Below the pieces are notes generated by a model. That model was given only the letters and a program-made list of their open reading frames with translations, had not been told where the DNA came from and searched no databases. Below are positions 11,808-56,000 of a stretch of DNA of 64,000 nt, piece by piece. Both the position numbers and the translations under genes were made by a program. The stretch covers positions 2,542,001 through 2,606,000 of the forward strand of contig OZ014424.1 in assembly GCA_963965975.1 (NCBI GenBank), written 5' to 3'. Each line of letters opens with the position of its first letter. Within the stretch, counting starts at the first letter, position 1. The stretch is from Xestospongia bergquistia (lineage: Eukaryota; Porifera; Demospongiae; Haplosclerida; Petrosiidae).

Positions 11808-11857
11808 ACTGAGCAGTTTAGAGTATCCAGTGATTTTTATAAAGTAAACTGCTCAGT
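11808..11857. repeat. Inversion point of the satellite (short hairpin)
   Basis: Forward monomers end with ACTGAGCAGTTTA (11,808-11,820). After a 24-bp spacer the reverse complement TAAACTGCTCAGT starts at 11,845, and every following monomer is in the opposite orientation. This is one clean strand switch, not a gradual change. It could come from inversion or fold-back repair, or from a joining error in the assembly. Confidence 0.9.
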
Positions 11858-17921: not shown

Positions 17922-17966
<45 letters not shown>

Positions 17967-23300: not shown

Positions 23301-26273
23301 CTGTGCAGGTTGTCTGTTATCACGTGCAACAAGTGAAGACAATTTTCTTTGTGACTTGAGATTAAAACTTAGACTCTTTTCACTTCTTGATGCCAATGAG
23401 CTAGCAGACATTACTTAAGAGACTTTATGTAGTCCAACAGATCCTATTATCAACATACATCAATGTTTCTGTCCAGCAGCTAGTTCACTGAATGGAAGGT
23501 ACTCATGTTCTTTTTTAGCTTTCTAATCTCTTTCTCTTTCCCATAGTTTGAGTGGTTAGTATAAGATGAGTTCCTCTTGTTTTTTTGTCATTGGAGAGCT
23601 CATCCTTTCATGTCGTTTATAACCCATAGCATCTCATGTACAAGGATATTTTGGAAAGTTTGCAAATTGTATTTTCTACCAAGAACAAATCAACTTTGTG
23701 TTTGATGCTCAAGATTGTATGCATCAAATTCTATTGGTTAGTTTGTTATTTGCCTTGTCATTCATTCATCCATCCATTCATTCATTCGTGCGTTCATCTA
23801 TTCATCCATCTATTCATTCATTCATGCGTTCATCTATTCATCCATCCATTCATTCATTTGCCATTTATCCATCCATTACAGCACTTTTAAAAAGCAATGA
23901 TTATTACTAGCTACATAATCAACAAAAAAAGCAAATAATGGTTACTTCTACTTCACACTGTCCGGCTCACCCATGTCGTTCCCACATATCTCTCTTAATT
24001 CAGTCTCCCTTTTGACTTCTCTTTAATAGAGACACTCAACAGGACCCTGTAGCTCACCCTTTTCTCCTCCTCCATTCTACTCACCAAAGAAGCATAAACA
24101 CAAAAGAAGTATCTCCTGGTCAACAACGCTAAGATCCTCACTCTTAGTCCCATAATGTAGCAACATGAGGAGCGCGAGCAATAGTACTGGCAGCTGATAG
24201 TAATTGTGACACTCTTTGAAGTAACACTAGTCGTTTTACTTTCTCTATTTCTGTTATACCAAGTTTAATGGAGGATTTCTTTTAGTTGGTTATAAGAGTG
24301 CTGCCTCTTCATGTGGAGGTCTACTTACATAGCAGGTTTGTCCTCAAATATACTATGAATGTTATTATGGAATATGAATAATTATTAGTGAAATCATTAA
24401 TTATTTATTTTATGTATTTACAAAAACTGTTTGACTCTTTCTTAAGTATCTAATTGGTGTGCATGCTACTAAATTCACATGTAAATGTATTATTGTTCTA
24501 ACCTCAGTATAGATCTTAAGGACAAAAGAGATTCCAGAAATGGATTATCATAGACACATTTTTTGTGAAATTTTAGAAGCCATTTTCCTTTATTCCTTTT
24601 ACGAATAAGTTTTTCTCTAATCATTCTCTTATGGCTCCTAAAATGAACAATAAGAAAATACATATATATGTGTATTCATGTATACATGTATCCTACTCTG
24701 ATCATTTAGACAATCAGCTTGGAAACAACAAATAAGGGGTGTGGTTTGTTTGGATCTTTCATACGAGGATCCCTTTGTTCCTCAGACACAAATCATCTAT
24801 CATGGAAGTACTGTCAAAGCTTCACTTTTATGGTCTATAGTACTGCTTCATTCATCTATCCACTCATCCGTTGATAGTATAATAGTATGTTGTATTCGAG
24901 ATGGGTTCTTTATAGTCTACTATGAAAATTACTAGAGTAAGTCTCTCACATAAAATATATCAATTCGACAGTCCTTTGTCTAGATTCTGAAATTGAAGTG
25001 GTTATGGCGTATCCAATGCAATCAAATGTTACTATTGAATGCAATGTTCCACTAGTGAGTTTTTAATGTCCATTCCATGAATCTATCCATCCATTTTCTA
25101 TTTCATGTATCCATTCATCAGTCTATTGATCCATTTATCCACCTATTTATTCATTCATTCAATCAATGCATTCATTCATTCTTTTATAGCCCTGGCCTCT
25201 TATTGACTTTAGCTGTTCACTGGTGGCGACATTCTCATTTGAAGCTTCTTATCCATTTGTTAGAGACTTCCAAAATGAAAAAGACATCCAACATTTTCAG
25301 GGCCTCAATCAGTCTACTGTTATTATCACAACAGATGTCACATTATTATTAATTTTATATCGCAGAACTGCTCTGAAATGACTCAATAATAATAATAATA
25401 TTAAAGGTATTTGTTACCTAGCAACCATTAACACACACTAATTTATTTTTGCTATTTGTCCATTACAAATTTGAATCAAAAAATTATGTATCTATTTTAG
25501 CATAGATTGGTCTGATATTGTGGGTGGAGGCACAATAATCAGACTGTTCTTGCTGCACCATCTGGTCTTCAATTACTTGTTGGAGAAAAAGTATTGGACA
25601 TTCCTTATAAGGTAAACTAGCAACTCCTCCACCTCTTGTATTCATGCATCCGTCCTTTCAGCATCTATTCAACTCTTCAATTCATCAACAGACTATTCAT
25701 TTATTTAACCATTTTTTCTCTTTTTGTGTAGATCCATTCTGTCGATATTGAGGTCCGAACAAGTTTTCTAGAACAATATTCTGCTGGTTCAATACCTACT
25801 CTACTTCCTTATCTATCTTTCTTGACCTTTTTCAAGTTACAGCATACACTTTGTCAGCATTTATAGAAGGTGAGAAAGAATTATTGACTAACAATAACAG
25901 CTATCAATTAACTATAAAATAAAATGATAATTTAAAATTAATTACCTATTATTAAACTTAATAATTTATAAAAAGTTTAATAATTGAGTATATTTAAATT
26001 TTATTTCAAATTGAATTGTGGGCAGATACTTTTAACATTTGAAACGTCACACAAAAATACATAATGAGAAAGATGTGAGCTGTTTGTCTGTTCATTCATT
26101 AAATGATTAGTCCATTCATTCATCCATCTATCCGTTCATTTCCTTTTAGTCAACTATTATACGTGATGATAGAGAGTCCCTCGAATTACTTCCACTTACA
26201 ACAAAGTCCCTACTCCAAGATTTTTACCTTCAAACTAGATGACACAGATAATGAAGAAGATCTTTTTGTCTTT
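20396..26273 (+). pseudogene. Larger block of the unrecognised intron-rich gene with internal duplications
   Basis: Two exons join in phase 0: 21,499-21,567 (23 codons, TVLAAPSGLQYLVGEK..., preceded by CAG, followed by GTAAAC) and 21,684-21,794 (37 codons, IHSDDIEVLTSFLEQYSAGS..., donor GTAAAT). Another likely exon begins at 21,146 after TTTATAG and reads PWPLIDFSCSLVVTFSFEAS.... The second exon recurs at about 22,244 and 25,734, and the 20,396-21,300 segment recurs at 24,444-25,355, so the block holds tandem internal duplications. Some repeats of the 37-codon exon lose its donor and hit a stop soon after. The family is unknown to me. Either a real gene with duplicated parts or an array of decaying fragments is possible. 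Confidence 0.55.
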
Positions 26274-26290
26274 GTCTTCCTCTATTGTTT
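21291..26290. repeat. Segmental duplication, copy 1 (~5 kb)
   Basis: This copy matches 35,938-45,200 once the transposon at 37,906-42,129 is removed. From 21,291 to 23,258 the offset to the other copy is constant (14,647), so there is no net indel over ~1.97 kb. I counted about five substitutions there, for example TATATCGCAG against TATATTGCAG. The remainder matches with few substitutions and small indels. This copy preserves the uninterrupted transposon target, ACTATATATGCC at 23,252-23,263. Confidence 0.95.
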
Positions 26291-28369
26291 ATGATATAAT
26301 GTACATACAATAGGTAAAACAGGTCTTAAAATTACTCATAATGGTTAGTATAAGATGAATTACTCTCTTGTTTTCTTGTCGTAGGAGAGCCCATCCATTC
26401 AACTCGTTTATAACCCATATCATCTCATGTACAAGGATGTTCTGGAAAGTTTGCAAATTGTACTTAAACCAAGAACAAATCAACTTTGTGTTTGATGCTC
26501 AAGATTGTATGCATCAAATTCTATTGGTTAGTTTGATATTATCCTTGTCATTTATTCATCCATCCATTCATTCATTCGTCCATTCATCTATTCATCCATC
26601 CGTTCATTCATTTGCCATTTATCCATTCATCCATCCATTACAGCACTTATAAAAAGCAATGATTATTACCATGCTACAACATCAACAAAGCAAATAATGG
26701 TTACTTCTACCTCACACTGTCCGGCTCGTTGCCACTTAATTCAGTCTCCCTTTTGACCTCTCTTTAATAAAGACACTCAACAGGATCCTGTAGCTCACCC
26801 TTTTCTCCTCCTCCATTCCTCTTACCAAAGAAGCATAAACAAAAAAGAAGTATCTCCTTGTCAACAACACCAAGATCCTCACTCTTAGTCCCATAATGTA
26901 GCAACATGAGGAGCGCGAGCAATAGTACTGGCAGCTGATAGTAATTGTGACACTCTTTGAAGTAACACAAGTAGTAGTTTTACTTTCTCTATTCCTGTTA
27001 TACCAAGTTTAATGGAGGATTTCTTTTGGTTGATTATAAGAGTGCTGCCTCTTCATGTGGAGGTCTACTTACATAACAGGTTTGTCCTCACATATACTAT
27101 GAATGTTTGACTCTTTCTTTCTCTTTAGATGTTCTAGTATTATTACAATGAATGATAGTCTACTATTGCTTTGTAATAATGTCGTTAATAGTAATAGGAG
27201 AAGTATGTCAAAGAACAAACCAGGTATATAATGAATAGATTGATAAAGGAGTGTGACAATAGGTGACAAATGAATGACAGAGTAATGGACATATCATTGA
27301 AGTCAATGGACGGATGAGTAGATAGACTAATGTAAAGACAGGTGAACATATGGATTCACAAACAGATAAATAGATTTACTAATGAATGTTTTATTAATGA
27401 GTGCTTTGTTAATGATTGTTCTGTTCTCTTTATATAGTGGTTTTTGTTAAATGATCTACTTGATACTCATGTGTGTAGTCCTTTGTTGCTCCCTGAGTCT
27501 TGTTCTGATAAGTGGGTAGAGGGAGTTATGGGAAATCAAAGTGAAAATATTCAAACTGGGGAGCGATTTGCTCCCTAACAATAGAATGTCCATCAAACTG
27601 GTAAAAACATATCACACCACAACATTGGAGACTGAGAAAAATGAAAAGTAATTATTATATTTGTGCATGTTTTTAGCAATTTTCTACCTATCCATCAATC
27701 CATCCATTTATTATTAATTTTACTTCCTCTTTTTGTCTTTCTGTATTTGTCTTCCTTTATTGTTTGTTATACAATGTACATACAATAGGTAAAACAGGTC
27801 TTAAAATTACTCATAATGCTTTAGATGCCTTTGCCATTAATAGCTGTATGGATGTTTTATGTAATACATGATGCACATTAGATGGAGGTGAAGAGGCTAT
27901 CTTTAATATCAAGCATAAACCAAACTAAATGGACCAGTTATTAATACTTATATTACAGGATGTTTTAGTTATTATGTCAAGTTGAAGCAGGATTTAATGC
28001 ACATGGCAATGATTAACATTCATGACATTCGCAACAATATGTATCACTCTATTAATCTGTACGTTCACTCTAGTGATCCATCCATTCATAGGTATGGTAC
28101 TCATATCTGCCAGTCTTTTTTCACCCATGGAGACTGTCCTTTCTCCTTTACCCATTCTTCTTCCTCCTCCAATTCTCTCTGATTCCCCAACCCTTGAAGA
28201 ATCAATACTGGTCACCACTCCAGCTTGTCTATCAACTATGAATGATGCTGGGTCTCCTACTACTTTTATCACAACTGGTCCCCCTACCTGCTACCTACAC
28301 AACTGATGTGTTCTCTCTATCACGCTCTCTTTTCTCTTAAGTCTACTTCAACAGAAATGAAATTAGTAT
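26274..28369 (+). pseudogene. Second copy (A2) of the 2.1-kb gene fragment
   Basis: This is the paralogue of 15,411-17,492, with scattered substitutions and short indels. It continues directly from the end of the 5-kb duplication. The WFLLNDLL-type exon recurs at about 27,437, but an extra G and other changes shift its later frame relative to A1. After about 28,369 the two copies part. Confidence 0.6.
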
Positions 28370-35937: not shown

Positions 35938-37901
35938 ATGTCACATTATTATTAATTTTATATTGCAGAACTGCTCTGAAATGACTCAATAATAATAATA
36001 ATATTAAAGGTATTTGTTACCTAGCAACCATTAACACACACAAATTTATTTTTGCTATTTGTCCATTCAAAATTTGAATCAAAAAATTATGCATCTATTT
36101 TAGCATAGATTGGTCTGATATTGTGGGTGGAGCCACAATGATCAGACTGTTCTTGCTGCACCATCTGGTCTTCAATATCTTGTTGGAGAAAAAGTATTGG
36201 ACATTCCTTATAAGGTAAACTAGCAACTCCTCCACCTCTTGTGTCCATCCATCCTTCCAGCATCTATTCACCTCTTCAATACATTAACAGACTATTCGTT
36301 TATTTAACCATTTTTTCTCTTTTTGTGTAGATCCATTCTGACGATATTGAGGTCCTAACAAGTTTTCTAGAGCAATATTCAGCTGGTTCAATACCTACTC
36401 TACTTCCTTCTCTATCTTTCTTGACCTTTGGACTACAAACTGTAAATACAACTATTTTTAACAGCTGATAACAGGGAAACTAATCCAGTTTAAACTCTCA
36501 TCACTTTACTCCAAGTCTCAAGTTACAGCATACACTTTCTCAGCATTTATAGAAGGTGAGAAAGTATTATTGACTAACAATAAAGCTATCAATTAACTAT
36601 AAAATAAAAAAATGATAATTCAAAATTAATTACCTATTATTAAACTTAATAATTAATAGTAATTTATAAAAAGTTTAATAATTGAGTATGTTTAAATTTT
36701 ATTTCAAAAGATATATGGGTGTGGCTTAGAAAATTACTAATGAAAACATTCATAATCTCTAAAGACATTAATTTTAGTGATAGATGCAGTACATTATATG
36801 TAATGAATAGTAAGAATTAATGAATGTAAATTTTGATTCTGAAAGAAAAATACTATTTCATACAACTTTCAGTGCATATTTTTGTGTAGATCCATTCTGA
36901 CGATATTGAGGTCCTAACAAGTTTTCTAGAACAATATTCTGCTGGTTCAATACCTACTCTACTTCCTTCTCTATCTTTCTTGACCTTTTTCAAGTTATAG
37001 CATACACTTTGTCAGCATTTATAGAAGGTGAGAAAGAATTATTGACTAACAATAACAGCTATCAATTAACTTTACAATAAAATGATAATTTAAAATAAAT
37101 TACCTATTATTAAACTTAATAATTTATAAAAAGTTTAATAATTGAGTTGGAAGTTATTTCAAGAGAGATCAAAGTTGTTGTGGTGACGTTTTGCTTACAA
37201 TGAACAAGAGAGTCTTCCTCTAATTTTTATACCATGTTTCCTATGCCCCACCCATCAATCTCAACTCAAGGGACTTATTGTCTTCCAATGGTATCCATTG
37301 CTAATAGCAATATGCGAGCATCCCACATTTGTAGACAAAATCACAGAAACATTAGCATCACTTTTTGAAAGGAAATATTTTTATCATTTCTTCAAGAATT
37401 AGTATTTATTCAATTGAAGGTGTGGGCAGATACTTTTAACATTTGGAACATCACACAAAAATACATAATGAGAAATATGTGAGTTGTCGGTCTGTTCATT
37501 CATTTAATGATTAGTCCATTCATTCATCCATCTATCCATTCATTTCCTTTTAGTCAACTATTATACATGATGATAGAGAGTCCCTCGAATTACTTCCACT
37601 TACAACAAAGTCCCCTACTCCAAGATTTTTACCCTCAAACTAGATGACACAGATAATGAAGATGAGACGATTGACCTAGAACTGTTATTATCACTTTCAT
37701 CAGAAAGTGCTCGCTGTTCCAGTCTCCATATAAACCACACCTTTTTATTTCTACATTTGAGTTACACATTAAAATATAACTCCATTGGAGATAATGCAGA
37801 ACAACAAGATAATTAAAGATGGCAGAATTCCTCTCTGCTTAAGTAAATTCATTTTGTTTCTGATTATATTATATCAATGTTATGTGTACACTACATATAC
37901 T

Positions 37902-37905
37902 ATAT
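37902..37905. other. Target-site duplication, left (ATAT)
   Basis: ATAT precedes GTGACC, and ATAT follows CGGTCAC at 42,130-42,133. The empty copy at 23,252 has ACTATATATGCC, which is what is obtained by collapsing one ATAT. Because the site is an AT run, a 2-bp TA duplication with one extra base at each end of the element fits equally well. Confidence 0.75.
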
Positions 37906-37943
37906 GTGACCGTAAATACGAAAATGGTACCTAACGCGCAATT
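37906..37943 (+). repeat. Left terminal inverted repeat
   Basis: This 38-bp repeat is a perfect reverse complement of 42,092-42,129. It begins GTGACCG and ends GCGCAATT. Confidence 0.97.
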
Positions 37944-38682
37944 TGAAGAATTTGAGATAGTCACACGACATGGTTAAGCTTGTTTTTGGCTACAAAATGT
38001 TTTTTGTCCTTTTGGAATCACGCGTCCCGTTTCCAAGATACGCGAGGAGGAAGACGCTTCGTTTGTTAATTATTTTATTGAGAAAAATGCATTTTTAGCT
38101 ATTTTTCAATGTTTCCGTAATCTTACTCCGTATTGAATAATGTCACATGATAAACCACAAGACCTCGTGGTGGCTAAATAGCCAGGAAGGTGATGGCGAT
38201 GCTCTCATTTGACTTCTTTACTACGAAGAAGGCTAAACTATGTCTGATTAGTAAGTGAAGTATTTGATAGATTAGTATACTATTCTGTCACTATCCAATA
38301 GGTGCCGCGCTACCTTCTCATGATGAATTTAGATTGGAGTCAAAGAATTTCGAGATGTGTCAACATTTTATTTATAGTTAAAGGTTAGACTTTACTAGAT
38401 AATGTATGTTAGTTCTAAGTGACAGAACTCATGCAAATGAAGACGTTGGATAGTGTACAATAAAAACTGTTTCTGCCTTATTGTTTGTTAATCTTATTAT
38501 TGAGTTTGAAGTCAAAGTATTATAACTATTATCATTGTGGTAGAATGTTGTGTATTGTTAATAGTTCTAAATGTTACTTTTTAAAAGTTGGATTAGGCAT
38601 TTTCACACTCTACCAGAATATTCATTTCCTCATTCCTGCTTAACTTTTAATGTAACAATTGAAATCTTTTGTTGTAAATGGT

Positions 38683-38876
38683 GATTCTTAAAAGAACCGT
38701 TAAAAATTGTTTTTGGTTCTGAAAAGAACCATTGTAAAGAATGGGAGTGGTGGTTCTGAAAAGAACCGTTATAAAGAATGGGAGTGGTGGTTCTGAAAGA
38801 ACCATTGTAAGAATGGGAGTGGTGGTTCTGAAAAGAACCATTGTAAAGAATGGGAGTGGTGGTTCTGAAAAGAATC
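38683..38876 (-). promoter_or_regulatory. Tandem histone-type 3' stem-loops in the transposase 3' UTR
   Basis: On the coding (minus) strand, GGTTCTTTTCAGAACC occurs perfectly at 38,824-38,839, 38,752-38,767 and 38,715-38,730. A version one loop base shorter lies at 38,789-38,803, and imperfect versions lie at 38,861-38,876 and 38,683-38,698. The spacing is 35-37 bp, and the linker begins ACCACTCCC. A 6-bp stem with a TTTC loop and ACCAC directly after it is the layout of the replication-dependent histone mRNA 3' stem-loop; the two central stem pairs are pyrimidine-purine as that consensus allows. The first loop is 52 nt after the stop codon. Whether SLBP or histone-type cleavage acts here is inference; the repeats could instead be DNA-level protein sites. 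Confidence 0.7.
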
Positions 38877-38928
38877 GTTAACAGGAATATTATAAGTTGA
38901 AATGCCCAGTAATGATGAAGCAATGAAA

Positions 38929-41900
38929 TTAGTTGCTCTTTTGACAGGATCTTCGATTATGGCCAGCAATACCACAATTACCACAGATTCTTAATCGCTT
39001 TCTTGGAGGGGAATCTAAAATACCATAAATATGTTATTATTGATTTAGTTAATTTACCTGATGTTGATTCTTGACTTTGTAAGTCTAGAGGAGCTTCAAC
39101 ATCTTGTTCTGAAGAGGAGACGTGTTGTTCATTAGAGCAATTTTTTGGTCTTAATGCAGTAGGTTGTGGACAAGTGAGATCCTTTGATCTCAAAGAAGTA
39201 CAAAATGGTCGGATTTTTTCGAAGAGATACCACTGCCTCTTCTCAGACAATCCCTTTGGATGAACTACAGGTGGTAATTAGGCTGATGATGGGCTCCAAG
39301 ATAAATCACTCTTTCTAAGATCAAGCTCCAGCTGTTCAGAATCACTGAACCTTTTAACAAAGACCCTGCCTGGCTTCTCAGCAACAAAGTAAAACTGATG
39401 ATACTGCTTGATGTTTGGGACCTTTTTGAAATATACACCAAGATGAGTGGACCAATCATACGTTGGAACTATCATTTGTCCATCCTGTGTTCCTACAAGT
39501 CTTGTTTCGTTAAGTGCTGCTGACTCGTTAATCATTTGAACGATGTCTTGCAGGCATTCGACATTTGTTTTTTTGTATTTTTGTTTGATTAGTCCAAAAC
39601 CTGCATCTGGTGCAAACTTGGTATGTCCAACTACCATAAATGAGAGAATAATGGATCTGCTCAGACCAACCATCACTCTCCAGCACAGATACTATTTTAA
39701 GTAAATTTAATATTAATAATGATGATAATTTTGATAGTTATTATTTTACCTGAATAACTGTGTTATTCTTGTTTTGTCCTATACAGTTGTCAGCATGCAT
39801 AGACTGGTGCATCTCTCCGAGCCCAAAGTTAGTGAGAAAGTCATGTAACAAGCTAACAACCTTGTTCGATCCTTTGCCAGTGTCACAAGATTCATCAATC
39901 AAGTAGTTAACCTAGAAAAGGACTGCCTGCTATGTAAGTATTGTATGATTAATATTTACCTGTCTGGGTATTCCCTCACAGCATATACCAAATAGCCCAC
40001 ACTTTCTTGGTGTTAGGAAATAAATTGGTCCAGGTTGTAAGGGGTTGCTTGGATAATGCATTTGCTGTGCAAAATCAAAACTTAGATGAAGACTTATGTC
40101 TCTTGTACAGTTAGTAATGGAGGTTCTAAAAGGAGGCAGACAGAAAGTTAGTTCGTCGATTGTGAACCCTTGTTCAATGTTATTTTTGCTTTTAGCACAT
40201 TCAGCTTTGTAGAAATTTCTCTCGATTGTTGCTTGCTCAATGTGAGCCTTTGCTGAATCAATGATCTAGTATAAATTATCATTATTACCTTTGTTGTTAT
40301 CGTTCATATTTACCTGTAGTTTGTGAGACTCAGACGAATTAGCAGCCTGAGTAATTGCAACAGAATTTCTCTGGCATATCCAGCAGAGATCTGATCTTGG
40401 TTTTGTGATGACGACGTGAGGAGCAAACTTCTTCCATATTTTGATAAAGCTCATGTATCCAGCTATACGTCTTGATGATGGTCCATTTGCACGAATGTAA
40501 TCATTCCATACTCCTCTCTTTGTCATGTGAGTCGGAAGCAATTGTATGTCTATTCTTTTATAACCAGGGATTCTCCCTGGTAGTAAAATACCATGAGTTT
40601 CAGCGTAGTTTTTTATGAATGTGACTGTATGTTTCAGTTCCTCTGTTGTGTATGCATTGTGTGGTAGCCGATTAGCATTGCCGTGAATTCTTGTATTTAA
40701 TCCGTAGTTGAGATAGCTTAGCCTGATGGCATCTAATCTCTTTCTACTGATGCTATGCAAGAATAGAAAAGTTGTCCTACAAATCTATAAGATATATTCT
40801 GTTAGTCAATTGTTGAAAGCTGTGCTTACACTACCTTAATACCTTGATGCATGAACTGTGTTCTTATTTTTTCTCTGTCCTTTACCTGATGTCCTCTATG
40901 GTGAATCTTTGTAGATGTCGATATGCTGGCCATTATTTGTCCAAAAATAACAAAATCAAGTGTCGAATGGTCCAATGCTTGACATTGACTCCTAATAGAT
41001 TCGTAGTGGTCTACTGAGAAGGCTCTGCTACAAGGACCATTCCTATATGACCCACACCCACATCCAGTCTCAAAGAAGTAATCTATTTTCTCTTTTTCAT
41101 TTCTGTCTATACCTCTGTCATCCAGCGTAACCTCAACTGAAATATCACAATGAAATTGATGGTCAACTATGGTAATAGATTGACTAACTTTCTTGTACTG
41201 CTATGTCAGCAGATTCATAAACAACATCTACTGTAATTATGGTATGTCTGAAGATTTTGTTTTATTGAGCTTACTTTCATCATTTTCCCTTTGTGGTAGA
41301 GTAATAACATTAACTGTACTCCTTTCCAAAGGAGTGCTATCATGTTCCATAACTAAACAAGGTGTATGAATTGTACAAGACATTGTCTGTTTTATCTTGT
41401 ACATCATTAGGTGCTGCTACTTCATTAGTGTCTGTGGTATGCTGCTCGATTTCTTCTACGAAAGAGGTATGACTATGTTTCATTAATGTAGCATCTACCT
41501 TCTGTAGTCTCTTCAGGACCCTCAATAATACCACTTCCCAATATTGTAGAAGCCTCTATGTGATGATGATATTCGGAGAGGTCTACTTCTTCGTCGCCTT
41601 AAAATAATTATGTTTGATTATTAAATAATTAGTAAAGTCAAAGTAAAACTAGAAATAGTAAGAATTTAATAAACATACTGGAATAGTCATCGAAGGAACT
41701 GTCTTCGCTAAGGAAGTATTCCTCTATAAAGGATTCTAGTAGAGATTGGTCACTGGAACAAAACGATCTACTCGTGGTAAGATCATTCAAGACTAGCAAT
41801 TTGTTTTGTTTTCTCCATCGAATTCTAACTGAAAGTAACAGCTGCAGCTCTTAGCGCGCAAGGGCCTGTGTTACCAGGGCAGTGCATCGCGTCAAGCATG

Positions 41901-42025
41901 GCTCCATTCGCGGTAAAACCGTATACTATAACAGTTGTGTTAGAAAAATTGTAACATTGGAAAACAAGAGTTTTGTTAAGTTTGAAAGAGCAACATGAAG
42001 TATAGTGTTTGTGAACGTCGACCAT
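38929..42025 (-). pseudogene. DUF7869-family transposase-like gene, 12 exons, one in-frame stop
   Basis: Exons on the minus strand: 41,876-42,025; 41,679-41,829; 41,499-41,597; 41,421-41,455; 41,275-41,386; 41,189-41,230; 40,832-41,136; 40,314-40,784; 39,960-40,265; 39,750-39,911; 39,058-39,691; 38,929-39,014. They sum to 2,553 nt (851 codons) with all phases consistent. Motifs: CGCG...GPCSRAF (residues ~222-235), CRTTFLFLHSISRKRLD (~300), PGRIPGYK, CWIC (432-435), HYPSNPLQPGPIYFLTPRK, VNYLIDES (D563), HADNCIGQNKNN (D598), GHTKFAPD (H634, D640), and a C-terminal zinc knuckle CGNCGIAGHNRRSC (833-846). This is the layout of DUF7869 proteins, thought to have an RNase-H-like fold. A TAA at 39,278-39,280 (codon 749) interrupts the frame before GLSEKRQWYLFEKIRPFC. 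Introns are 43-81 nt except one of 34 nt (41,387-41,420), which may be misplaced. The start codon is uncertain. Confidence 0.85.
39278..39280 (-). other. Premature TAA stop in the transposase-like frame
   Basis: The frame is open and family-like on both sides (SWSPSSA before; GLSEKRQWYLFEKIRPFC after), with no frame shift and no intron signals around it. The truncated product would keep the predicted catalytic region but lose the C-terminal ~100 residues and the zinc knuckle. Confidence 0.8.
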
Positions 42026-42091
42026 ACCGAAATCTCGATTTCCATTAGTCAACCATTTCGAACATATTTTAGCCTGTAGTGAAAAAACAAT

Positions 42092-42129
42092 AATTGCGCG
42101 TTAGGTACCATTTTCGTATTTACGGTCAC
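42092..42129 (-). repeat. Right terminal inverted repeat
   Basis: This is the perfect partner of the left TIR. Read on the minus strand it contains AAAATGGTACC, an ATG followed at once by GT, and a strong acceptor (TTTTTTCACTACAG) lies about 13-27 bp inside the element. Confidence 0.97.
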
Positions 42130-45100
42130 ATATATGCCAATTGATAACACTATCGATGATATCATTATTTTATTGCCGTGCAGGTTGTCTGTTATCACGT
42201 GCAACAAGTGAAGACAATTTTCTCTGTGACTTGAACTTAGACTCTTTTCACTTCTTGATGCCAATAAGCTAGCAGACATTACTTAAGAGACTTTATGTAG
42301 TCCAACAGATCCTATTATCAACATACATCAATGTTTCTGTCCAGCAGCTAGTTCACTGAATGGAAGGTACTCATGTTCTTTTTTAGCTTTCTAATCTCTT
42401 TCTCTTTCCCATAGTTTGAGTGGTTAGTATAAGATGAGTTCCTCTTGTTTTTTTGTCATTGGAGAGCTCATCCTTTCATGTCGTTTATAACCCATAGCAT
42501 CTCATGTACAAGGATATTATGGAAAGTTTGCAAATTGTATTTTCAACCAAGAACAAATCAACTTTGTGTTTGATGCTCAAGATTGTATGCATCAAATTCT
42601 ATTGGTTAGTTTGTTATTTGCCTTGTCATTCATTCATCCATCCATTCATTCATTCGTGCGTTCATCTATTCATCCATCTATTCATTCATTCATGCGTTCA
42701 TCTATTCATCCATCCATTCATTCATTTGCCATTTATCCATCCATTACAGCACTTTTAAAAAGCAATGATTATTACTAGCTACAAAATCAACAAAAAAAGC
42801 AAATAATGGTTACTTCTACTTCACACTGTCCGGCTCACCCATGTCGTTCCCACATATCTCTCTTAATTCAGTCTCCCTTTTGACTTCTCTTTAATAGAGA
42901 CACTCAACAGGACCCTGTAGCTCACCCTTTTCTCCTCCTCCATTCTACTCACCAAAGAAGCATAAACACAAAAGAAGTATCTCCTGGTCAACAACGCTAA
43001 GATCCTCACTCTTAGTCCCATAATGTAGCAACATGAGGAGCGCGAGCAATAGTACTGGCAGCTGATAGTAATTGTGACACTCTTTGAAGTAACACTAGTC
43101 GTTTTACTTTCTCTATTTCTGTTATACCAAGTTTAATGGAGGATTTCTTTTAGTTGGTTATAAGAGTGCTGCCTCTTCATGTGGAGGTCTACTTACATAG
43201 CAGGTTTGTCCTCAAATATACTATGAATGTTATTATGGAATATGAATAATTATTAGTGAAATCATTAATTATTTATTTTATGTATTTACAAAAACTGTTT
43301 GACTCTTTCTTAAGTATCTAATTGGTGTGCATGCTACTAAATTCACATGTAAATGTATTATTGTTCTAACCTCAGTATAGATCTTAAGGACAAAAGAGAT
43401 TCCAGAAATGGATTATCATAGACACATTTTTTGTGAAATTTTAGAAGCCATTTTCCTTTATTCCTTTTACGAATAAGTTTTTCTCTAATCATTCTCTTAT
43501 GGCTCCTAAAATGAACAATAAGAAAATACATATATATGTGTATTCATGTATACATGTATCCTACTCTGATCATTTAGACAATCAGCTTGGAAACAACAAA
43601 TAAGGGGTGTGGTTTGTTTGGATCTTTCATACGAGGATCCCTTTGTTCCTCAGACACAAATCATCTATCATGGAAGTACTGTCAAAGCTTCACTTTTATG
43701 GTCTATAGTACTGCTTCATTCATCTATCCACTCATCCGTTGATAGTATAATAGTATGTTGTATTCGAGATGGGTTCTTTATAGTCTACTATGAAAATTAC
43801 TAGAGTAAGTCTCTCACATAAAATATATCAATTCGACAGTCCTTTGTCTAGATTCTGAAATTGAAGTGGTTATGGCGTATCCAATGCAATCAAATGTTAC
43901 TATTGAATGCAATGTTCCACTAGTGAGTTTTTAATGTCCATTCCATGAATCTATCCATCCATTTTCTATTTCATGTATCCATTCATCAGTCTATTGATCC
44001 ATTTATCCACCTATTTATTCATTCATTCAATCAATGCATTCATTCATTCTTTTATAGCCCTGGCCTCTTATTGACTTTAGCTGTTCACTGGTGGCGACAT
44101 TCTCATTTGAAGCTTCTTATCCATTTGTTAGAGACTTCCAAAATGAAAAAGACATCCAACATTTTCAGGGCCTCAATCAGTCTACTGTTATTATCACAAC
44201 AGATGTCACATTATTATTAATTTTATATCGCAGAACTGCTCTGAAATGACTCAATAATAATAATAATATTAAAGGTATTTGTTACCTAGCAACCATTAAC
44301 ACACACTAATTTATTTTTGCTATTTGTCCATTACAAATTTGAATCAAAAAATTATGTATCTATTTTAGCATAGATTGGTCTAATATTGTGGGTGGAGCTA
44401 CAATAATCAGACTGTTCTTGCTGCACCATCTGGTCTTCAATATCTTGTTGGAGAAAAAGTGTTGGACATTCCTTATAAGGTAAACTAGCAACTCCTCCAC
44501 CTCTTGTATTCATGCATCCATCCTTTCAGCATCTATTCAACTCTTCAATTCATCAACAGACTATTCATTTATTTAACCATTTTTTCTCTTTTTGTGTAGA
44601 TCCATTCTGTCGATATTGAGGTTCTAACAAGTTTTCTAGAACAATATTCTGCTTGTTCAATACCTACTCTACTTCCTTATCTATCTTTCTTGACCTTTTT
44701 CAAGTTACAGCATACACTTTGTCAGCATTTATAGAAGGTGAGAAAGAATTATTGACTAACAATAACAGCTATCAATTAACTATAAAATAAAATGATAATT
44801 TAAAATTAATTACCTATTATTAAACTTAATAATTTATAAAAAGTTTAATAATTGAGTATATTTAAATTTTATTTCAAATTGAATTGTGGGCAGATACTTT
44901 TAACATTTGAAACATCACAAAAAAATACATAATGAGAAAGATGTGAGCTGTTTGTCTGTTCATTCATTAAATGATTAGTCCATTCATTCATCCATGTATC
45001 CGTTCATTTCCTTTTAGTCAACTATTATACATGATGATAGAGAGTCCCTCGAATTACTTCCACTTACAACAAAGTCCCCTACTCCAAGACATTTACCCTC

Positions 45101-45200
45101 AAACTAGATGACACAGATAATGAAGAAGATCTTTTTGTTTTTGTCTTCCTCTATTGTTTATTATACAATGTACATACAATAGGTAAAACAGGTCTTAAAA

Positions 45201-45295
45201 TTGTTCCTCAGACACAAATCATCTATCATGGAAGTACTGTCAAAGCTTCACTTTTATGGTCTATAGTACTGCTTCATTCATCTATCCACTCATCC
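45201..45295 (+). pseudogene. Exon fragment joined to the end of the duplication
   Basis: Ninety-five bases equal an internal part of the segment found at about 24,776-24,870 and 43,644-43,738 (it reads PQTQIIYHGSTVKASLLW). It is joined directly after GGTCTTAAAATT with only a TT overlap. It starts and stops inside the source exon, so this is a rearrangement scar, not a spliced copy. Confidence 0.85.
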
Positions 45296-46716: not shown

Positions 46717-48640
46717 ATAAATTATGTAACAAAACTGTAAAAGATAATTCATTGCAAATTGATTTAATTTTAAATACAGTGTATACAGGTTGCATAGTTA
46801 TGAAAAATATCTACATATAATACTATTAATTACTAATGGATTACGAAAGTGAAGGTGATATAGCTAGAATTAGTAAAAGCAATAGGTTAGGCTTATTTTC
46901 AGCAAAAATAAATTTGCAATTGCAATCTGTACATATAACTAGTGGTAATTATACTGTTGAATATCAGATTTATCCCAAGTATTGCTGTGAAGTACTTCAT
47001 ATATCTAAAGTGTATAGTCTGTTATGTTCATATCAGGTCATTTTTACAATTGGGAATTATAAGAGTTGATGAATAGAATTTTATATTTTTAGGTTTCTCT
47101 GTTTTCAAGTATAACATTTGAGAAATAACAAGTCATAAGTCAAGATTCTTTAGTCATTTCTGTCATTTGTCTTCACAGTCATCTATTTTTGTAATTGTCT
47201 GGGATGTTCTAATGTATCACTACATTATATTATAAAGATATTTTGGATATACTATGTACAGCAAACTCAGACATCAAATAGTGCCAGTAATACTACTTTT
47301 AAATAATGAATATTTTATGAGTTTTCTTTGTTCTCATTATCTAGATAGATAGTTAACGTGTGGACAGGATATTATAAGATCTTTGTTACTGGCATCTTCT
47401 TGTGCTTTTTTGCTTGGACACTTCTGGTGTGTGTTTTATTATCAGCTTATTGCCCTAATAATCCATTATTTTTTGTAATATATGCACTTGCATATCTTTG
47501 TACTGTAGCTGGTTTTCGAAACTACTCCTCTCATGAATTTTATCAAGTTTGATTGTACTCAACTATGCTAGGAAGAACAAGTACCCAAAGAATTGCAGTG
47601 CCTTGACCTACTGGGAGGAGGACTACCATACCAAATCACTCATCATCAGCACTTTATATTAGATAACGTATATAATGTACTTTATATCGGAGAAATTAAA
47701 ATTTGTTTTACCTCTTTTAATGTGTTTCCTGTAAAGGAAACAACAGACACCCTTAATGTTAACTGCGATTGCAGCAAAATTACTCCTGCTCTGCTCTACT
47801 AAATGGCTTTTTGAAAGCCACCATTACAAGACGTTGTGCTGTTGTTGTTTACTAGAATGGGACTGTGGCTGATTCGATAGTATTTGTTGTAAACTGCTCT
47901 ATTAAGTATTCTTTAATTCAATATACTGAGACTTTATAAGACAGTATCTTACATACTAAAGCTCTTTCCTCCTCTCTCATGCACTCACTCTAGCTCACTC
48001 ACTCTTTTTCTCATCTTGTCTAATATGTCAGTTAAATCATTGTCTCCATTTATATGGACTCCAACTAAACCTTGGCATTCGCGTTTTCATAATAGTATAA
48101 TTTGTTGTTAAGCTGCATTCAAATGTGACAATATGCACCTTTAATAATATTATTATATCTTAGCAGTAGTGACAACACAGTTGACCTCTCCTCTATAAGT
48201 ACTCATATTTGTACCAAAAGCTTTGATCACTCCAGACACTTTGGTGAAACGATTATTTTCACACTTAGCTTCTTTGAGCAATTAACTTTAGCATACCAAA
48301 TCGTGAATGCATATACAGCTGGTTGATTGTTTGAATAATCAAATTTTTTTTCACCCAGTTTGTTAGTGAGGAGTGGAATTCATCATGCATACTTGTATAT
48401 CACACAGTCAAAAATCAAACAGTAAGGGGGCAGATCCCCCCCCCCCCAATTTCAAAAGTGGGGGGGCTCCATCCCCCCTGCCCCCTAGTTCTCCACAACT
48501 GATTAATAAACCTATATTCAGACAGACAATGTTCATTGTGTACTATAGATAAGATATACGGAGTTATATAGTTGTTATTGTCATGGCGCAATATCCATCA
48601 TCAACTGAACATTCTCAGTTCACAATAGTGGTGCCACATT
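46717..48640. other. Single-copy stretch with weak open frames
   Basis: Open plus-strand frames of 60-80 codons occur at 46,836-47,069, 47,358-47,552 and 47,593-47,802. The second encodes a strongly hydrophobic stretch (IFLCFFAWTLLVCVLLSAYC), which could be a membrane segment. None has recognisable family features, and none can be connected confidently by splicing. Confidence 0.35.
48423..48487. repeat. C/G-run hairpin
   Basis: AAGGGGGCAG and CTGCCCCCT flank a long C run (48,438 onward) and a G7 run. Together they form an inverted repeat of about 65 bp that stands out from the AT-rich surroundings. It may be a tiny foldback element; it also has G-quadruplex potential. Confidence 0.6.
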
Positions 48641-49916
48641 TCTACAGTGTGTCAGCATTTTACTTCTGCAGGGCTGTTTAGCAAGACTACTGGCACCAAA
48701 TTTGTACTAGAAATTAATAAACTTAGATGCCATTCCTTCATTTTAGCAACCGTGTGTCTCGACTTTACTTCTGCAGGGCTGTTTAGCAAAACAGAAGAAG
48801 GAACTGGATTCCATACAGCCAAGTCATTTGACAGTGATGTTCCTCGCTACAACAAAAGGGAAAGACAGTAGTCAAATACGGTCAGAGTAGCAGTACTCCA
48901 CGTGTGTTAGTATATCTAGCTTGCCCAACTTAAGTTTTAAATTCAGTACTTTTAGTGCATCTGTTATCTGAACTAACCCTGTGATAAGTCATTTTCAAAC
49001 ATATCTCACTAGTCTTTTCTCTGTAATATATATACTTTAGTAATCAGTATACTTAGCACAATGTAGCAAGTCTGAATAATATTAGTCACGTGTTTTATTT
49101 AGTACAAGCCTATTTACCCCCATTGTGTCTACGTTTGTATCAGTATCAGCTTGTTTGATAATGATGTTCCTCACTGCAACAAAAGGGAAAGACAGTAGTA
49201 ACAAATATGGTCAGAGTAGCAGTACTCATGTATGTTAGTATATCTAGCTTGACTTTTAAATTCAGTGAGATTTAGCTCTTAGTTTTGTGCATTTATTACC
49301 TTAACTAAGCCTGTAATAAGTCATTTTAAAACATATTTTACCTGTCCTTGTCTATATAATATATACACTTTGGTAACCAGTATATTTAGTACAATGTAGC
49401 AAGTCACGTGTTTTTACAGGCTTTTTACCACCATTGTGTCTGCTGTGGTATCAGTATCAGCTTGTAATGGTTTGTACTAGAAATCATGGACTGCATTACT
49501 TCATTTTAGCAATCAACGTGTCAGGACTTTATTTCTACAGGGCTGTTTAACAAGACAAAAGAAGGAACTGTATTCCATGCAATAAATCTTAGACGATGAT
49601 GTTATTAGCTAGAACAAAAGAAATTGAGTCAGATTTAGCCCTTAGTTTTAGTGCATCTTTTATGCAAACTAAGCCTGTAATAAGTCATATGGAAACATAT
49701 CTGACTATTCCTTTTCTCTAATATATAAACTTTAGTAACCAGTATATTTAGTAAAATGTAAAGGAAGTCTGAATAATATTTGTCAAATGTTTTATCACTA
49801 CAAGCCTATTTAGACCCATTATGTCTACCTTTATTTAGTACAAGCCCATTTAAACCTATTGTGTCTACTTTTGTATCAGTATCAGCTTGTAATGGTTTGT
49901 CACAATTTTTTTGCAG

Positions 49917-50026
49917 GGCTATTTACCCTCATTGTCTCTACGTTTGTGTCAGTATCAGCTTGTGCTGTATTATTATTGGTTGGTTGTTGTATTGTGTATA
50001 CTTATGAATATGATTATCATGTGTAG
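49917..50026 (+). CDS. Terminal-exon-like frame with a transmembrane segment, copy 1
   Basis: After TTTTTTTGCAG the frame reads LFTLIVSTFVSVSACAV, then LLLVGCCIVYTYEYDYHV and TAG (50,024-50,026). It encodes one hydrophobic span of about 25 residues and a short acidic/aromatic tail. The first bases after the acceptor (GGCTNTTTA) and the reading phase are the same as in the GLFSK exon, so both look like alternative exons of one ancestral gene. No ATG-bearing 5' exon is visible nearby. The gene is unrecognised. Confidence 0.45.
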
Positions 50027-53000
50027 ACTTCCTGTCTATGCACTATGTATTATAAAATGTGCATATTGTGGAGATTTTTTTGAGTCTTGAGTATTGCCCT
50101 ATATCATACGTGAATGTGTTTGTAATGGTTGTACTACAAATCATTAGAAATACATTACTTCATTTTAGCAACTAATGTATCAGGACTTTACTTCTACAGG
50201 GCTGTGGACCAAGACAGAAGAAAGAACTGTATTCCATGAAGGCAAGTCCTCGCTACAAGAAAGGGAAAGACTGTAGTAACAAACACGGTCAGAGAAGCAG
50301 TACTCCATGTGCTGTAGTATATCTAACATGACTTTTAAATTCAGTGAGCTTTAGCCCTTAGTTTTAGTGCATTTGTTATCTCAACTAATCTTATTGTAAG
50401 TCTTTTTGAAATATAATATCTCACTAGTCCGTAATATAAAGACTTCAGTAACCGGTATATTTTGTACAATATATATAGTGAGTCTCAATAAAATTAGTCG
50501 AGCGTTTTTATTTAGTACAAGCCTTTTTACCCCCATAGTGTTTACTTTTGTATGAGTATGACTTTGTAATGGTATATACTAGAAAACTTAGGACATTACT
50601 TCTGCAGGGCCATTTAGCAAGACAGTAGAAGGAACTGATTTCCATTTTGCCAAGTCATTTAACAGTGTTCTGCAGTAAATAACGTTCCTCTCTACAGCCC
50701 TAAGGCAAATAAATACAATCAGAATATCATTACTACATGTGCATTAGTATATCCACCTTGACTTTAAATTGAATGAGCTTTAGCCCTTAGTTTTAGTGCA
50801 TTTGTAGTATCAGCTTGTAATGGTTTGTACTAGAAATCTTACACAGCATTACTTCATTTTAGCAACCAATGAATCACGACTTTATTTCTGCAGGGCTGTT
50901 TAACAAGACAGAAGAAGGAACTGGATTCCATTCAGCAAAATCATTTGACAGTGTTCTCTGCAGTAAATCCGAGACAATAATGTTCCTCGCTACAACCCAA
51001 AGGCAAATAAATAGTGTCAATACTTCATGTGCATTAGTATATCTACCTTCACTTTAAATTCAATGAGCTTTAGCCCTATCTACCTTGACTTTAAATACTA
51101 TGAGCTTTATCCCTTTCTACCTTGACTTTAAATTCAATGAGCTTTACCCCTATCTACCTTGACTTAAAATTCAATGAGCTTTAGCCCTATCTACCTTGAC
51201 TTAAAATTCAATGAGCTTTAGCCCTTAGTTTAGTGCTTTTGTAGTATCAGCTTGTAATAGTTTGTGCTAGACAGCATTACTTCGTTTTAACAAGCAATGA
51301 ATCATGACTTTATTTAGCAAGACAGAAGAAGGAACTGGATTTCATTCAGCCAAATCATTCGACAGTGTTCTCTGCAGTAAATCCGAGACAATAATGTTCC
51401 TCAGTACAGCCCAAGAGTAAATAAATACAGTCAAGTGTCAATACTTCATGTGCGTTAGTATATCTAGCTTGACTTTAAATTCAATGAGCCTTTAGTCTTT
51501 AGTTTTAGTGCATTTGTTATCTTAACTAAGCCTGTAATAAGTCATTTTAAAACATATGTCACGTTAGTATACATAGCTTGAGTTTAAATTCAATGAGATT
51601 TAGCCCTTAGTTTAGTGCATCGTTACTTCGTTTTAGCAACCAAAGATTCATGACTTTATTTCTACAGGGCTGTTTAGCAAGATAGAAGAAGGAACCAGAT
51701 TCCATTCAGCCAAATCATTTGACAGTGTTCTCTGCAGTAAATCCAAGACAATAATGTTCCTCGCTATAGCCCAAGGGGAAGTAAATACAGTGAAGTGTGT
51801 TAGTATATATAGCTTGAGTTTAAATTAAATGAGCTTTAGCCCTAAGTTTAGTGGATTTGTCGTATCAGCTTGCAATGGTTTGTACTAGAAATCTTAGACA
51901 GCATTACTTCATTTTAGCAACCAAACATTCACAACTTTATTTCTACAGGTCTGTTTAGCAAGACAGAAGAAGGAGCCAGATTCCATTCAGCCAAATCATT
52001 TGACAGTGTTCTTTGCAGTAAATCCAAGATAATATTGTTCCTCGCTATAGCCCATGAGAAAGTAAATACAGTGAAGTGTGTTAGTATATATAGATTGAGT
52101 TTAAATTGAATGAGCTTTAGCCCTAAGTTTAGTGGATTTGTAGTATCGGCTTGCAATGGTTTGTACTAGAAATCTTTGACAGCATTACTTCATTTTAGCA
52201 ACCAATCATTCACGACTTTATTTCTACAGGTCTGTTTAGCAAGACAGAAGAAGGAACCAGATTCCATTCAGCCAAATCATTTGACAGTGTTCTCTGCAGT
52301 AAATTCAAGACAATAATGTTCTTTGCTATAGCCCATGGGCAAGTAAATACAGTGAAGTGTGTTAGTATATTTAATGAGCTTTAGTCCTTTGTTTATACAT
52401 TTGTAGTATGAACTTGTAATATTTTGTACTAGAAAACTTAGATAGCATTACATCATTTTAGCAACCAATGATTCATGACTTTATTTCTTAAGGACTGTTT
52501 AGCAAGACAGAAGAAGGAACCAGATTCCATTCAGCCAAATCATTTGACAGTGTTCTCTGCAGTAAATCCAAGACAATAATGTTCCTCGCTATAGCCCAAG
52601 GGGAAGTAAATACAGTGAAGTGTGTTAGTATATATAGCTTGAGTTTAAATTAAATGAGCTTTAGCCCTAAGTTTAGTGGATTTGTAGTATCAGCTTGCAA
52701 TGTTTTGTACTAGAAATCTTAGACAGCATTACTTCATTTTAGCAACCAATGATTCATGACTTTATTTATTCAGGGCTGTTTAGCAAGACAGAAGAAGGAA
52801 CCAGATTCCATTCAGCCAAATCATTTGACAGTGTTCTTTGCAGTAAATCCAAGACAATAATGTTCCTCGCTATAGCTCAAAGGGAAGTAAATACAGTGAA
52901 CTGTGTTAGTATATTTAGCTTGAGTTAACATTTATTGAGCTTTAGCCCTAACTTTAGTGGATTTGCAGTATCAGCTTGCAATATTTTGTACAAGAAGTCT

Positions 53001-56000
53001 TAGACAGCATTACTTCATTTTAGCAACCAATCATTCACGACTTTATTTCTACAGCGCTTCTTAGCAAGTGATTCCATTCAGCCAAATGATTTGACAGTGT
53101 TTTCTGCAGTAAATGCAATACAATAATGTTCCTCGCTATAGCCCATGGGCAAGTAAATACAGTGAAGTGTGTTAGTATTTTTAATGAGCTTTAGCCCTTA
53201 GTTTAGTGCATTTGTAGCATGAACTTGTAATATTTTGTACTAGAAAATTTAGATAGAATTACATCGTTTTAGCAACCAACGATTCATGACTTTGTTTTTT
53301 CAGGGCTGTTTAGCAAGACAGAAGAAGGAACCAGATTCCATTCAGTCAAATCATTTGACAGTGTTCTCTGCAGTAAATCCAAGCAATAATGTTCCTCGCT
53401 ATAGCCCAAGGGGAAGTAAATACAGTGAAGTGTGTTAGTATATATAGCTTGAGTTTAAATTGAATGAGCTTTAGCCCTAACTTTAGTGGATTTGCAGTAT
53501 CAGCTTGCAATGTTTTGTACCAGAAGTCGTAGACAGCATTACTTCATGATAGCAACCAATCATTCACGACTTTATTTCTAATGGTCTGTTTAGCAAGACG
53601 GAAGAAGGAACCAGATTCCATTCAGCCAAATCATTTGATAGTGTTCTCTGCAGTAAATTCAAGACAATAATGTTCCTCGCTATAGCTCATGGGCTAGTAA
53701 ATACAGTGAAGTGTGTTAGTATATATAGCTCGAGCCCTTAGTTTAGTGCATTTGTAGTATCAGCTTTTAATGGCTTGTACTAGAATTGTTAGACAGCATT
53801 ATTTCATTTTAGCACCTAATCATTCACGACTTTATTTCTACAGGGCTGTTTAGCAAGACAGAAGAAGGAACCACATTCCATTCAGCCAAATCGTTTGACA
53901 TTGTACTCTGCAGTAAATTCAAGACAATAATGTTCCTTGCCATAGCCCAAGGGCAAGTAAATACAGTGAAGTGTGTTACTATATATATAGCTTGACTTTA
54001 AATTTAATGAGCTTTAGCCCTTATTTTAGTGCATTTGTAGTATGAACCTATAATATTTTGTACTAGAAATCTTAGATAGCATTACTTCGTTTTAGCAACC
54101 CATGATTCATGATTTCTACAGGTCTGTTTAGCAAGACAGAAGAAGGAACCAGATTCCATTCAGCCAAATCATTTGACAGTGTTCTCTGCAGTAAATCCAA
54201 GACAATAATGTTCCTCGCTATAGCCCAAGGGGAAGTAAATACAGTAAAGTGTTTTAGTATATATCGCTTGAGTTTAAATTGAATGAGCTTTAGCCCTAAG
54301 TTTAGTGGATTTATAGTATCAGCTTGCAATGGTTTGTACTAGAAATCTTAGACAGCATTACTTCATTTTAGCAACCAATCATTTACGACTTTATTTCTAC
54401 AGGTCTGTTTAGCAAGACAGAAGAAGGAACCAGATTCCATTCAGCCAAATCATTTGACATTGTTCTCTGCAGTAAATCCAAGACAATAATGTTCCTTGCC
54501 ATAGCCCAAGGGCAATTAAATACAGTGACGTGTGTTACTATATGTATAGCTTGACTTTAAATTTAATCAGCTTTAGCCCTTAGTTTAGTGCATTTGTAGT
54601 ATGAACTTGTAATATTTTGTACTACAAAACTTAGATAGCATCACATCGTTATAGCAACGAATGATTCATGACTTTATTTCTACAGGGCTGTTTAGCAAGA
54701 CAGAAGAAGGAACCAGATTCCATTCTGCCAAATCATTTGACAGTGTTCTCTGCAGTAAATCCAAGACAATAATGTCCTCACTATAGCCCAAGGGGAAATA
54801 AATACAATGAAGTGTGTTAGTATATATAGCTTGAGTTTAAATTCTATGAGCTTTAGCCCTTAGTTTAGTGCATTTGTAGTATCAGCTTGTAATGGTTTAT
54901 ACTAGAAATGTTAGAAAGCATTACTTCATTTTGGCACCCAATCATTCACGACTTTATTTCTACAGGGCTGTTTAGCAAGACAGAAGAAGGAACCAGATTC
55001 CATTCAGCCAAACCATTTGACTGTGTTCTCTGAAGTAAATCGAAGACATAATGTTCCTTGCTCTAGCCCAAAGGGAAGTAAATAGAGTCAAGTGTGTTAC
55101 TATATGTATAGCTTGACTTTAAATTTAATGAGCTTTAGCCCTTATTTTAGTGCATTTGTAGTATGAACTTATAATATTTTGTACTACAAAACTTAGATAG
55201 CATTACTTCGTTTGAGCAACCAATGATTATGTATACTTATGAATATGATTATCATGTGTAGACTTCCTGTCCCATAAGTTATCTATGCACTATACATTAT
55301 AAAATGTGCATATTGTAGAGATTTTATTGAGTCTTGCGTATTGTCCTATATCATACGTGAATGTGTTTGTAATGGTTTGTACTAGAAATCTTAGACTGCA
55401 TTACTTCATTTTAGCAATAATGTTCCTCGCTATAACCCAAGGGCAAGTAAATACAGTCAAGTGTGTTAGTATATATAGCTTGAGTTTAAATTCTATGAGC
55501 TTTAGCCCTTAGTTTAGTGCATTTGTAGTATCAGCTTGTAATGGTTTATACTAGAAATGTTAGAAAGCATTACTTTATTTTGGCACCCAATCATTCACGA
55601 CTTTATTTCTACAGGGCTGTTTAGCAAGACAGAAGAAGGAACCAGATTCCATTCAGCCAAATAATTTGATAGTGTTCTCTTCAGTAAATTCAAGACAATA
55701 ACGTTCCTCGCTATAGCCCATGTGCAAGTAAATACAGTGAAGTGTGTTAGTATATATAGCTTGACTTTAAATTCAATGAGATTTAGCCCTTAGTTTAGTG
55801 CATCATTACTTCGTTTTAGCAACTAAAGATTCATGACTTTATTTCTACAGGGTTGTTTAGCAAGATAGAAGAAGGAACCAGATTCCATTCAGCCAAATGA
55901 TTTGACAGTGGTCTCTGCAGTAAATCCAAGACCAACAATGTTCCTCGCTACAACCCAAGGGCAAGTAAATACAGTCAGTGTATCAATACTTCATTTGTGT

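What the first reader, a model, noticed from the sequence alone, without database searches (positions are those of the whole stretch)
38683..38876. Array of histone-mRNA-type 3' stem-loops in the 3' UTR of a transposase-like gene
Five or six copies, in the sense orientation and starting 52 nt after the stop, match the replication-dependent histone stem-loop in stem length, TTTC loop and ACCAC flank. Such an element could couple transposase expression to S phase, or to oocyte and early-embryo SLBP. Tandem copies in a transposon would be unusual. The perfect copies are kept while linkers are also conserved, so DNA-level repeat homogenisation is an alternative.
Basis: partly seen in the sequence, partly recalled or inferred. 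Interest (0 to 1): 0.85.

Follow-up and report, generated by a model that had tools for sequence, protein, structure and literature searches.

The report
Histone-like hairpins behind a transposon gene
A jumping gene carries, just after its own coding sequence, a row of hairpins, some of which closely resemble the signal that ends animal histone messages; this hints that the element may borrow the cell's S-phase RNA machinery, but that is not shown.

Summary
Confirmed: six hairpin units at 38683-38876, minus strand, the first 52 nt after a TAA stop. Rfam Histone3 (RF00032) matches four on the sense strand at 34.2, 27.2, 24.4 and 21.0 bits, one over the gathering score of 34; the only other match in the window at E up to 10 scores 17.6. 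Three of six units are canonical. The carrier is a 4,226-bp DNA transposon (37905-42130) with perfect inverted repeats and an empty site in a sister duplication. Its spliced gene has a DUF7869 domain.

I favour a histone-type, SLBP-binding 3' element in the presumed transposase message (0.45). Against: linkers of units 1-4 are as conserved as the hairpins, no covariation, T or C before the stem, introns, and exact 20-mer matches in bacterial contigs. No host genome is held, so host histones and other copies of the element could not be compared. A histone hairpin in non-autonomous transposons is published (Tm1-HH, PMC3169594); a tandem array in the 3' UTR of the element's own gene would be a new variant.

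The parts
37905..42130 (-). DNA transposon, 4,226 bp, gene on the minus strand; target duplication TA (or ATAT, ambiguous)
   Evidence: Flanks match a sister duplication without it (21291-23258 and 23255-26333); ends and empty site
37905..37943 (+). Terminal inverted repeat on the side of the gene's 3' end, starting TGTGACCG, perfect over at least 38 bp
42092..42130 (-). Terminal inverted repeat on the side of the gene's 5' end
38929..41136 (-). Spliced gene model, C-terminal 637 aa, with DUF7869 domain (PF25273, 71.6 bits); presumed transposase. Exons further upstream are uncertain
39265..39309 (-). Candidate 45-nt intron that holds the only in-frame TAA of this part of the model
38861..38876 (-). 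Hairpin unit 1 (GATTCT-TTTC-AGAACC; A.C mismatch at pair 2)
38824..38839 (-). Hairpin unit 2, canonical; Histone3 34.2 bits
38789..38803 (-). Hairpin unit 3, one T lost
38752..38767 (-). Hairpin unit 4, canonical; Histone3 24.4 bits
38715..38730 (-). Hairpin unit 5, canonical stem and loop, AAA instead of ACC behind it; Histone3 21.0 bits
38683..38698 (-). Hairpin unit 6, G.U at pair 2, TTTA loop; Histone3 27.2 bits
38665..38670 (-). AAAAGA, candidate histone downstream element, 12 nt after unit 6
   Evidence: Position; AAAAGA lies 8-22 nt downstream of 0.7% of minus-strand positions
38646..38651 (-). ATTAAA, possible polyadenylation signal, 31 nt after unit 6; AATAAA further down at 38372 and 38079

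Best explanation
The 3' UTR of the presumed transposase gene carries a histone-type 3' element, acquired by capture or convergence and then multiplied by tandem duplication. In the message the canonical hairpins (units 2, 4, 5) would bind the host's stem-loop binding protein (SLBP). That would tie export, translation and decay of the message to S phase, or to SLBP of oocytes and early embryos. Cleavage after the last hairpin guided by AAAAGA, or polyadenylation at ATTAAA, would make the 3' end; both may occur. Shown: the hairpins, their place and strand, the Histone3 match, the transposon. Inferred: SLBP binding, kind of 3' end, cell-cycle control, benefit to the element, and that the gene is the transposase.
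For: Four sense-strand Histone3 matches, best 34.2 bits; the only other one in the window at E up to 10 has 17.6. 5 pattern matches in the array against 0.17 expected in the whole window. Against the consensus that Rfam prints, the canonical units differ in stem and loop only by a U-A for the C-G at pair 3 and by C for the weakly conserved last loop base, and ACC follows. First hairpin 52 nt after the stop. The spacer between units 5 and 6 has diverged (11 of 21 identical to the common linker) while hairpins 5 and 6 keep 16 of 16 and 14 of 16. AAAAGA stands 12 nt behind unit 6; the mouse purine core is AAAGAG, pairing with CUCUUU of U7 (passages of PMC7026596). A poly(A) signal close behind the hairpin is the layout of C. 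elegans histone genes (passages of PMC1924863). Local hairpins 2-5 form with pair probabilities of 0.59-0.84. Precedent of a histone hairpin in a transposon: PMC3169594.
Against: Only 3 of 6 units are canonical. No stem pair changes on both sides; all 500 shuffles do at least as well on all 5 measures. Linkers of units 1-4 are 81 of 84 identical and hairpins 1-4 are 62 of 64, so homogenisation suffices there; the sign of constraint rests on one spacer. The base just before the stem is T or C in all six, whereas passages of PMC10388802 name two flanking 5' adenines in the minimal RNA that binds SLBP with full affinity. Units 1 and 6 pair with each other (-13.8 kcal/mol) and show no local hairpin in the ensemble, which hides the unit nearest the candidate downstream element. 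The gene has introns, whereas replication-dependent histone genes lack them (start of the abstract of PMC8178370, in the listing). The exact 20-mer occurs in 5 stretches of bacterial contigs; 4 of these 5 match Histone3, at up to 29.5 bits, so scores of 20-30 can arise without histone function. My own estimate, from no call: a scan of very many windows could meet a 34-bit match by chance.
Confidence: 0.45

Rival explanations
1. A tandem repeat of DNA origin. A palindrome-bearing unit of about 37 nt was duplicated by slippage and homogenised; its likeness to the histone hairpin is a coincidence without RNA function.
For: Linkers of units 1-4 are as conserved as their hairpins (81 of 84, 62 of 64). 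No covariation. The window is rich in tandem arrays. The 20-mer occurs in bacterial contigs, with Histone3 scores up to 29.5. Outer units 1 and 6 are complementary to each other, as if the array grew inside one larger inverted repeat.
Against: The match falls on the sense strand, within 52 nt of a stop, with ACC behind the stem and above the gathering score. Hairpins 5 and 6 are kept although the spacer between them has diverged. In the 4 bacterial genomes searched, 0 of 35 matches reached 34 bits, and of 14 control genomes 9 had matches, 0 over the cut-off; only 150 first-look candidates per genome were scored in the four.
Confidence: 0.35
2. Internal binding sites for the transposase: palindromic repeats bound as DNA during transposition.
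For: Repeated palindromes near the ends of DNA transposons are a known form of such sites (recalled, no call).
Against: The array lies 778 bp or more from the nearer end, and no unit lies near the other end: in the element GGTTCT and AGAACC occur only in the array, but for one lone GGTTCT at 40122.
Confidence: 0.1
3. A captured piece of a host histone 3' end that is passive cargo and no longer acts.
For: Tm1-HH elements were proposed to have acquired host sequence in this way (PMC3169594). Units 1, 3 and 6 are imperfect.
Against: Three units are perfect, and the gene can be read to its end if one plausible intron is granted, so the element does not look decayed. No search for a histone coding remnant in the 3' UTR was made.
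Confidence: 0.1

Closest known systems
Replication-dependent histone mRNA 3' stem-loop (Rfam RF00032)
   Same: 6-bp stem, 4-nt loop, ACC(A) behind the stem, sense strand, 52 nt after the stop; one unit over the gathering score
   Different: Tandem units, a gene with introns that is not a histone, T or C before the stem, a candidate downstream element only behind unit 6
Tm1-HH elements of root-knot nematodes (PMC3169594; abstract, outline and passages seen)
   Same: A histone hairpin inside a DNA transposon with terminal inverted repeats
   Different: Tm1-HH are non-autonomous, without obvious coding potential, each described with a histone hairpin motif, with composite repeat ends and 9-bp target duplications. 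Here a tandem array lies in the 3' UTR of the element's own gene; inverted repeats are simple, about 38 bp; target duplication is TA or ATAT
DUF7869 family (PF25273)
   Same: 71.6 bits over profile positions 30-184 of 192
   Different: Pfam gives no function; the role as transposase is inferred from the structure of the element

Membership tests
Histone 3' UTR stem-loop (RF00032) | Score at or above the curated gathering score | tested here: met
   34.2 against 34 for unit 2 only; 27.2, 24.4 and 21.0 fall below; units 1 and 3 have no match of their own
Histone 3' UTR stem-loop (RF00032) | 6-bp stem with G-C at pairs 1 and 2, 4-nt loop | tested here: met
   In 3 of 6 units (2, 4, 5); 1, 3 and 6 deviate
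Histone 3' UTR stem-loop (RF00032) | Adenines directly before the stem | tested here: not met
   All six units have AAT or AAC before the stem; criterion from passages of PMC10388802. That AAC occurs in sea urchin histone genes is recalled and comes from no call
Replication-dependent histone 3' processing signal | Purine-rich downstream element that pairs with U7 | tested here: inconclusive
   AAAAGA 12 nt after unit 6 only; background 0.7% per position for a 14-nt stretch, but six units give six chances. Host U7 unknown
Replication-dependent histone 3' processing signal | SLBP binding and a non-polyadenylated 3' end | not testable with these tools
   Needs RNA and protein of the organism
Replication-dependent histone gene | Encodes a histone, no introns | tested here: not met
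   Spliced DUF7869 gene
Cut-and-paste DNA transposon | Terminal inverted repeats, target duplication, empty site | tested here: met
   superfamily not assigned
Tm1-HH | Composite ends with a tandem motif of about 14 bp and 9-bp target duplication | tested here: not met
   Simple inverted repeats and TA or ATAT duplication; definition from passages

The most novel reading that the evidence does not exclude
A DNA transposon with its own gene has taken over the histone mRNA 3' end pathway. A tandem array of SLBP sites on its transposase message limits production to S phase, or to the maternal SLBP of eggs and early embryos, so that the element moves when replication or germline passage favours it.
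Probability: 0.25. Interest if true: 0.85.

Novelty: new variant of a known kind. Interest (0 to 1): 0.58.

Why it matters
PMC3169594 says that before the gene Cg-1 the histone hairpin had been found only in histone genes. A transposase message under this control would give a direct way to test how a transposon times itself to DNA replication or to the germline, and whether several SLBP sites in a row act differently from one.

Tried and rejected
No relatives: the search for related loci in viral contigs with a DUF7869 piece and with exon 6 confirmed none; the 19-mer GGTTCTTTTCAGAACCACC gave 0 matches in viral contigs. The 20-mer in genome contigs gave 5 stretches, in records titled as bacteria. 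In three (L002, L003, L005) the reverse strand reads as a hairpin with GAAA loop followed by a run of T, like an intrinsic terminator, and none of the five frames looked like a histone to me. They served as a yardstick for Histone3 scores without histone function, but they were picked for holding the 20-mer, so the sample is biased. A PDB sequence search with 540 aa of the spliced protein gave 0 matches at E up to 1. MIR2933 (25.4 bits, gathering 70) was set aside as chance. No structure prediction was made.

Literature, open PMC papers only: 'histone stem-loop' with 'transposase' 0 papers; 'DUF7869' 0 papers; further searches. That I know of no tandem histone-hairpin array in the 3' UTR of a transposon gene rests on these searches and on the listings they gave. 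Passages only were seen of PMC1924863, PMC10388802, PMC7786107, PMC7026596 and PMC9756948; abstract, outline and passages of PMC3169594. PMC7786107 lists a Histone3 match of 14.7 bits inside a coronavirus gene: weak matches are easy to get.

Recalled, from no call: UUUC as the usual animal loop, AAC before the stem in sea urchin histone genes, palindromic repeats as transposase sites, intrinsic terminators.

Full report
What was checked. The array is real. On the minus strand six units follow the TAA stop at 38931-38929, the first stem starting after exactly 52 nt. Units 2, 4 and 5 read GGUUCU-UUUC-AGAACC. Unit 1 has an A.C mismatch at pair 2, unit 3 lacks one T, unit 6 has G.U at pair 2 and a UUUA loop. 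ACC follows five of six stems. With up to two mismatches the histone pattern is found 6 times in the window, 5 of them in the array, against 0.17 expected. Rfam's Histone3 matches four units on the sense strand at 34.2, 27.2, 24.4 and 21.0 bits; only the first passes the gathering score of 34. At E up to 10 the window holds one more match, 17.6 bits at 47800-47837.

The carrier. The flanks of 37905-42130 match a sister duplication without it: 21291-23258 pairs with 35938-37905 (99.7%) and 23255-26333 with 42130-45202 (98.8%). The ends are perfect inverted repeats of at least 38 bp, TGTGACCG..., and the empty site reads as a TA duplication, or ATAT if the end bases are counted to the target. 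This is a 4,226-bp DNA transposon; that it came in after the duplication is the simplest reading. Its minus-strand gene has exons with GT-AG borders and introns of 43-58 nt. The domain is DUF7869 (PF25273, 71.6 bits); a CCHC-like C-terminus stays below the curated cut-off (15.9 against 27). One in-frame TAA falls within a possible 45-nt intron; with that intron the model reads 637 aa to the final stop. Exons further upstream are uncertain. That the protein is the transposase is inferred.

The RNA. The 273-nt mRNA stretch folds at z = -5.9. In a larger stretch of the 3' UTR, hairpins 2-5 form locally with pair probabilities of 0.59-0.84; units 1 and 6 form no local hairpin, because they pair with each other. 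The changes at pair 2 of unit 1 and of unit 6 fit each other (GATTCTT with AAGAATC). This is either an outer RNA helix or a trace of a larger inverted repeat inside which the array grew. The other strand folds too (z = -5.0), so folding does not give the sense.

Selection or homogenisation? Among the units no pair changes on both sides; one cell of 35 breaks a pair and one unit has G.U. Linkers of units 1-4 are 81 of 84 identical and hairpins 1-4 are 62 of 64, so those units say nothing for selection on RNA. The spacer between units 5 and 6 has diverged (11 of 21 identical) while these two hairpins keep 16 of 16 and 14 of 16. The sequence after unit 6 differs too (12 of 27), but there the array ends, so that says little. 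The internal sign of constraint thus rests on one spacer.

The 3' end. AAAAGA stands 12 nt after unit 6 and ATTAAA 31 nt after it. AAAAGA lies 8-22 nt behind 0.7% of minus-strand positions. In mouse the purine core is AAAGAG, pairing with CUCUUU of U7 (passages of PMC7026596). C. elegans histone genes have hairpin, putative downstream element and poly(A) signal close together (passages of PMC1924863). The layout is alike, but alone unit 6 folds more weakly (-4.4 kcal/mol) than units 2, 4 and 5 (-6.9 to -7.8).

How special is the score? The exact 20-mer GGTTCTTTTCAGAACCACCA was scanned for in genome contigs: 5 stretches, in records titled as bacteria, three of them terminator-like on the other strand. 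4 of the 5 match Histone3, three at 29.5 bits and one at 24.1. In four of these genomes there are 35 matches at E up to 1, none over 34 bits, with 150 first-look candidates scored per genome; 9 of 14 control genomes have matches, 0 over the cut-off. So 34 bits is rare and 20-30 bits is no proof. By my own estimate a scan of very many windows could meet one such match by chance; place and strand make that less likely.

What is known. Gross and Williamson (PMC3169594; abstract, outline and passages) describe Tm1-HH: non-autonomous elements of root-knot nematodes with a histone hairpin, 8 in M. incognita, in a family whose transposase resembles Phantom of the Mutator superfamily. So a transposon with a histone hairpin is not new. 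A tandem array in the 3' UTR of the element's own gene was not found in the searches named under Tried and rejected.

Judgement. The histone-type element with SLBP as partner leads at 0.45; a DNA-level repeat without RNA function 0.35; DNA sites for the transposase 0.1; passive capture 0.1. The host is a eukaryote by its introns; its species is unknown to me and no genome is held, so the two tests that matter most, host histone 3' ends and other copies of the element, remain open.

Noticed in passing
window 38630-38923, minus strand: A 97-aa frame from TTG stays open through the array although unit lengths differ. It was not searched or tested for coding.
   Followed up: no
window 1-15409: A 143-bp satellite fills most of the first 15.4 kb; its consensus turns to the reverse complement at about 11,816.
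   Followed up: no
window 15409-28369 and 35938-45202: Nested duplications at 87-99.7% identity; one pair of blocks gives the empty site of the transposon.
   Followed up: partly
window 51623-59715: About 28 repeats of a 281-bp unit, with related pieces from 48719 to 64000; the unit looks like a splice acceptor and exon, perhaps a gene with many repeated exons.
   Followed up: no
window 38683-38698 and 38861-38876: The two outer hairpin units differ from the inner ones at partner positions and pair with each other.
   Followed up: partly
L002, L003, L005: Contigs titled Gastranaerophilales carry a hairpin with GAAA loop before a T run whose reverse strand scores 29.5 bits with Histone3: a source of false matches for this model.
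   Followed up: partly
window 17832-17981: A TC-rich simple repeat gives many sub-threshold microRNA matches on both strands, most likely artefacts.
   Followed up: no
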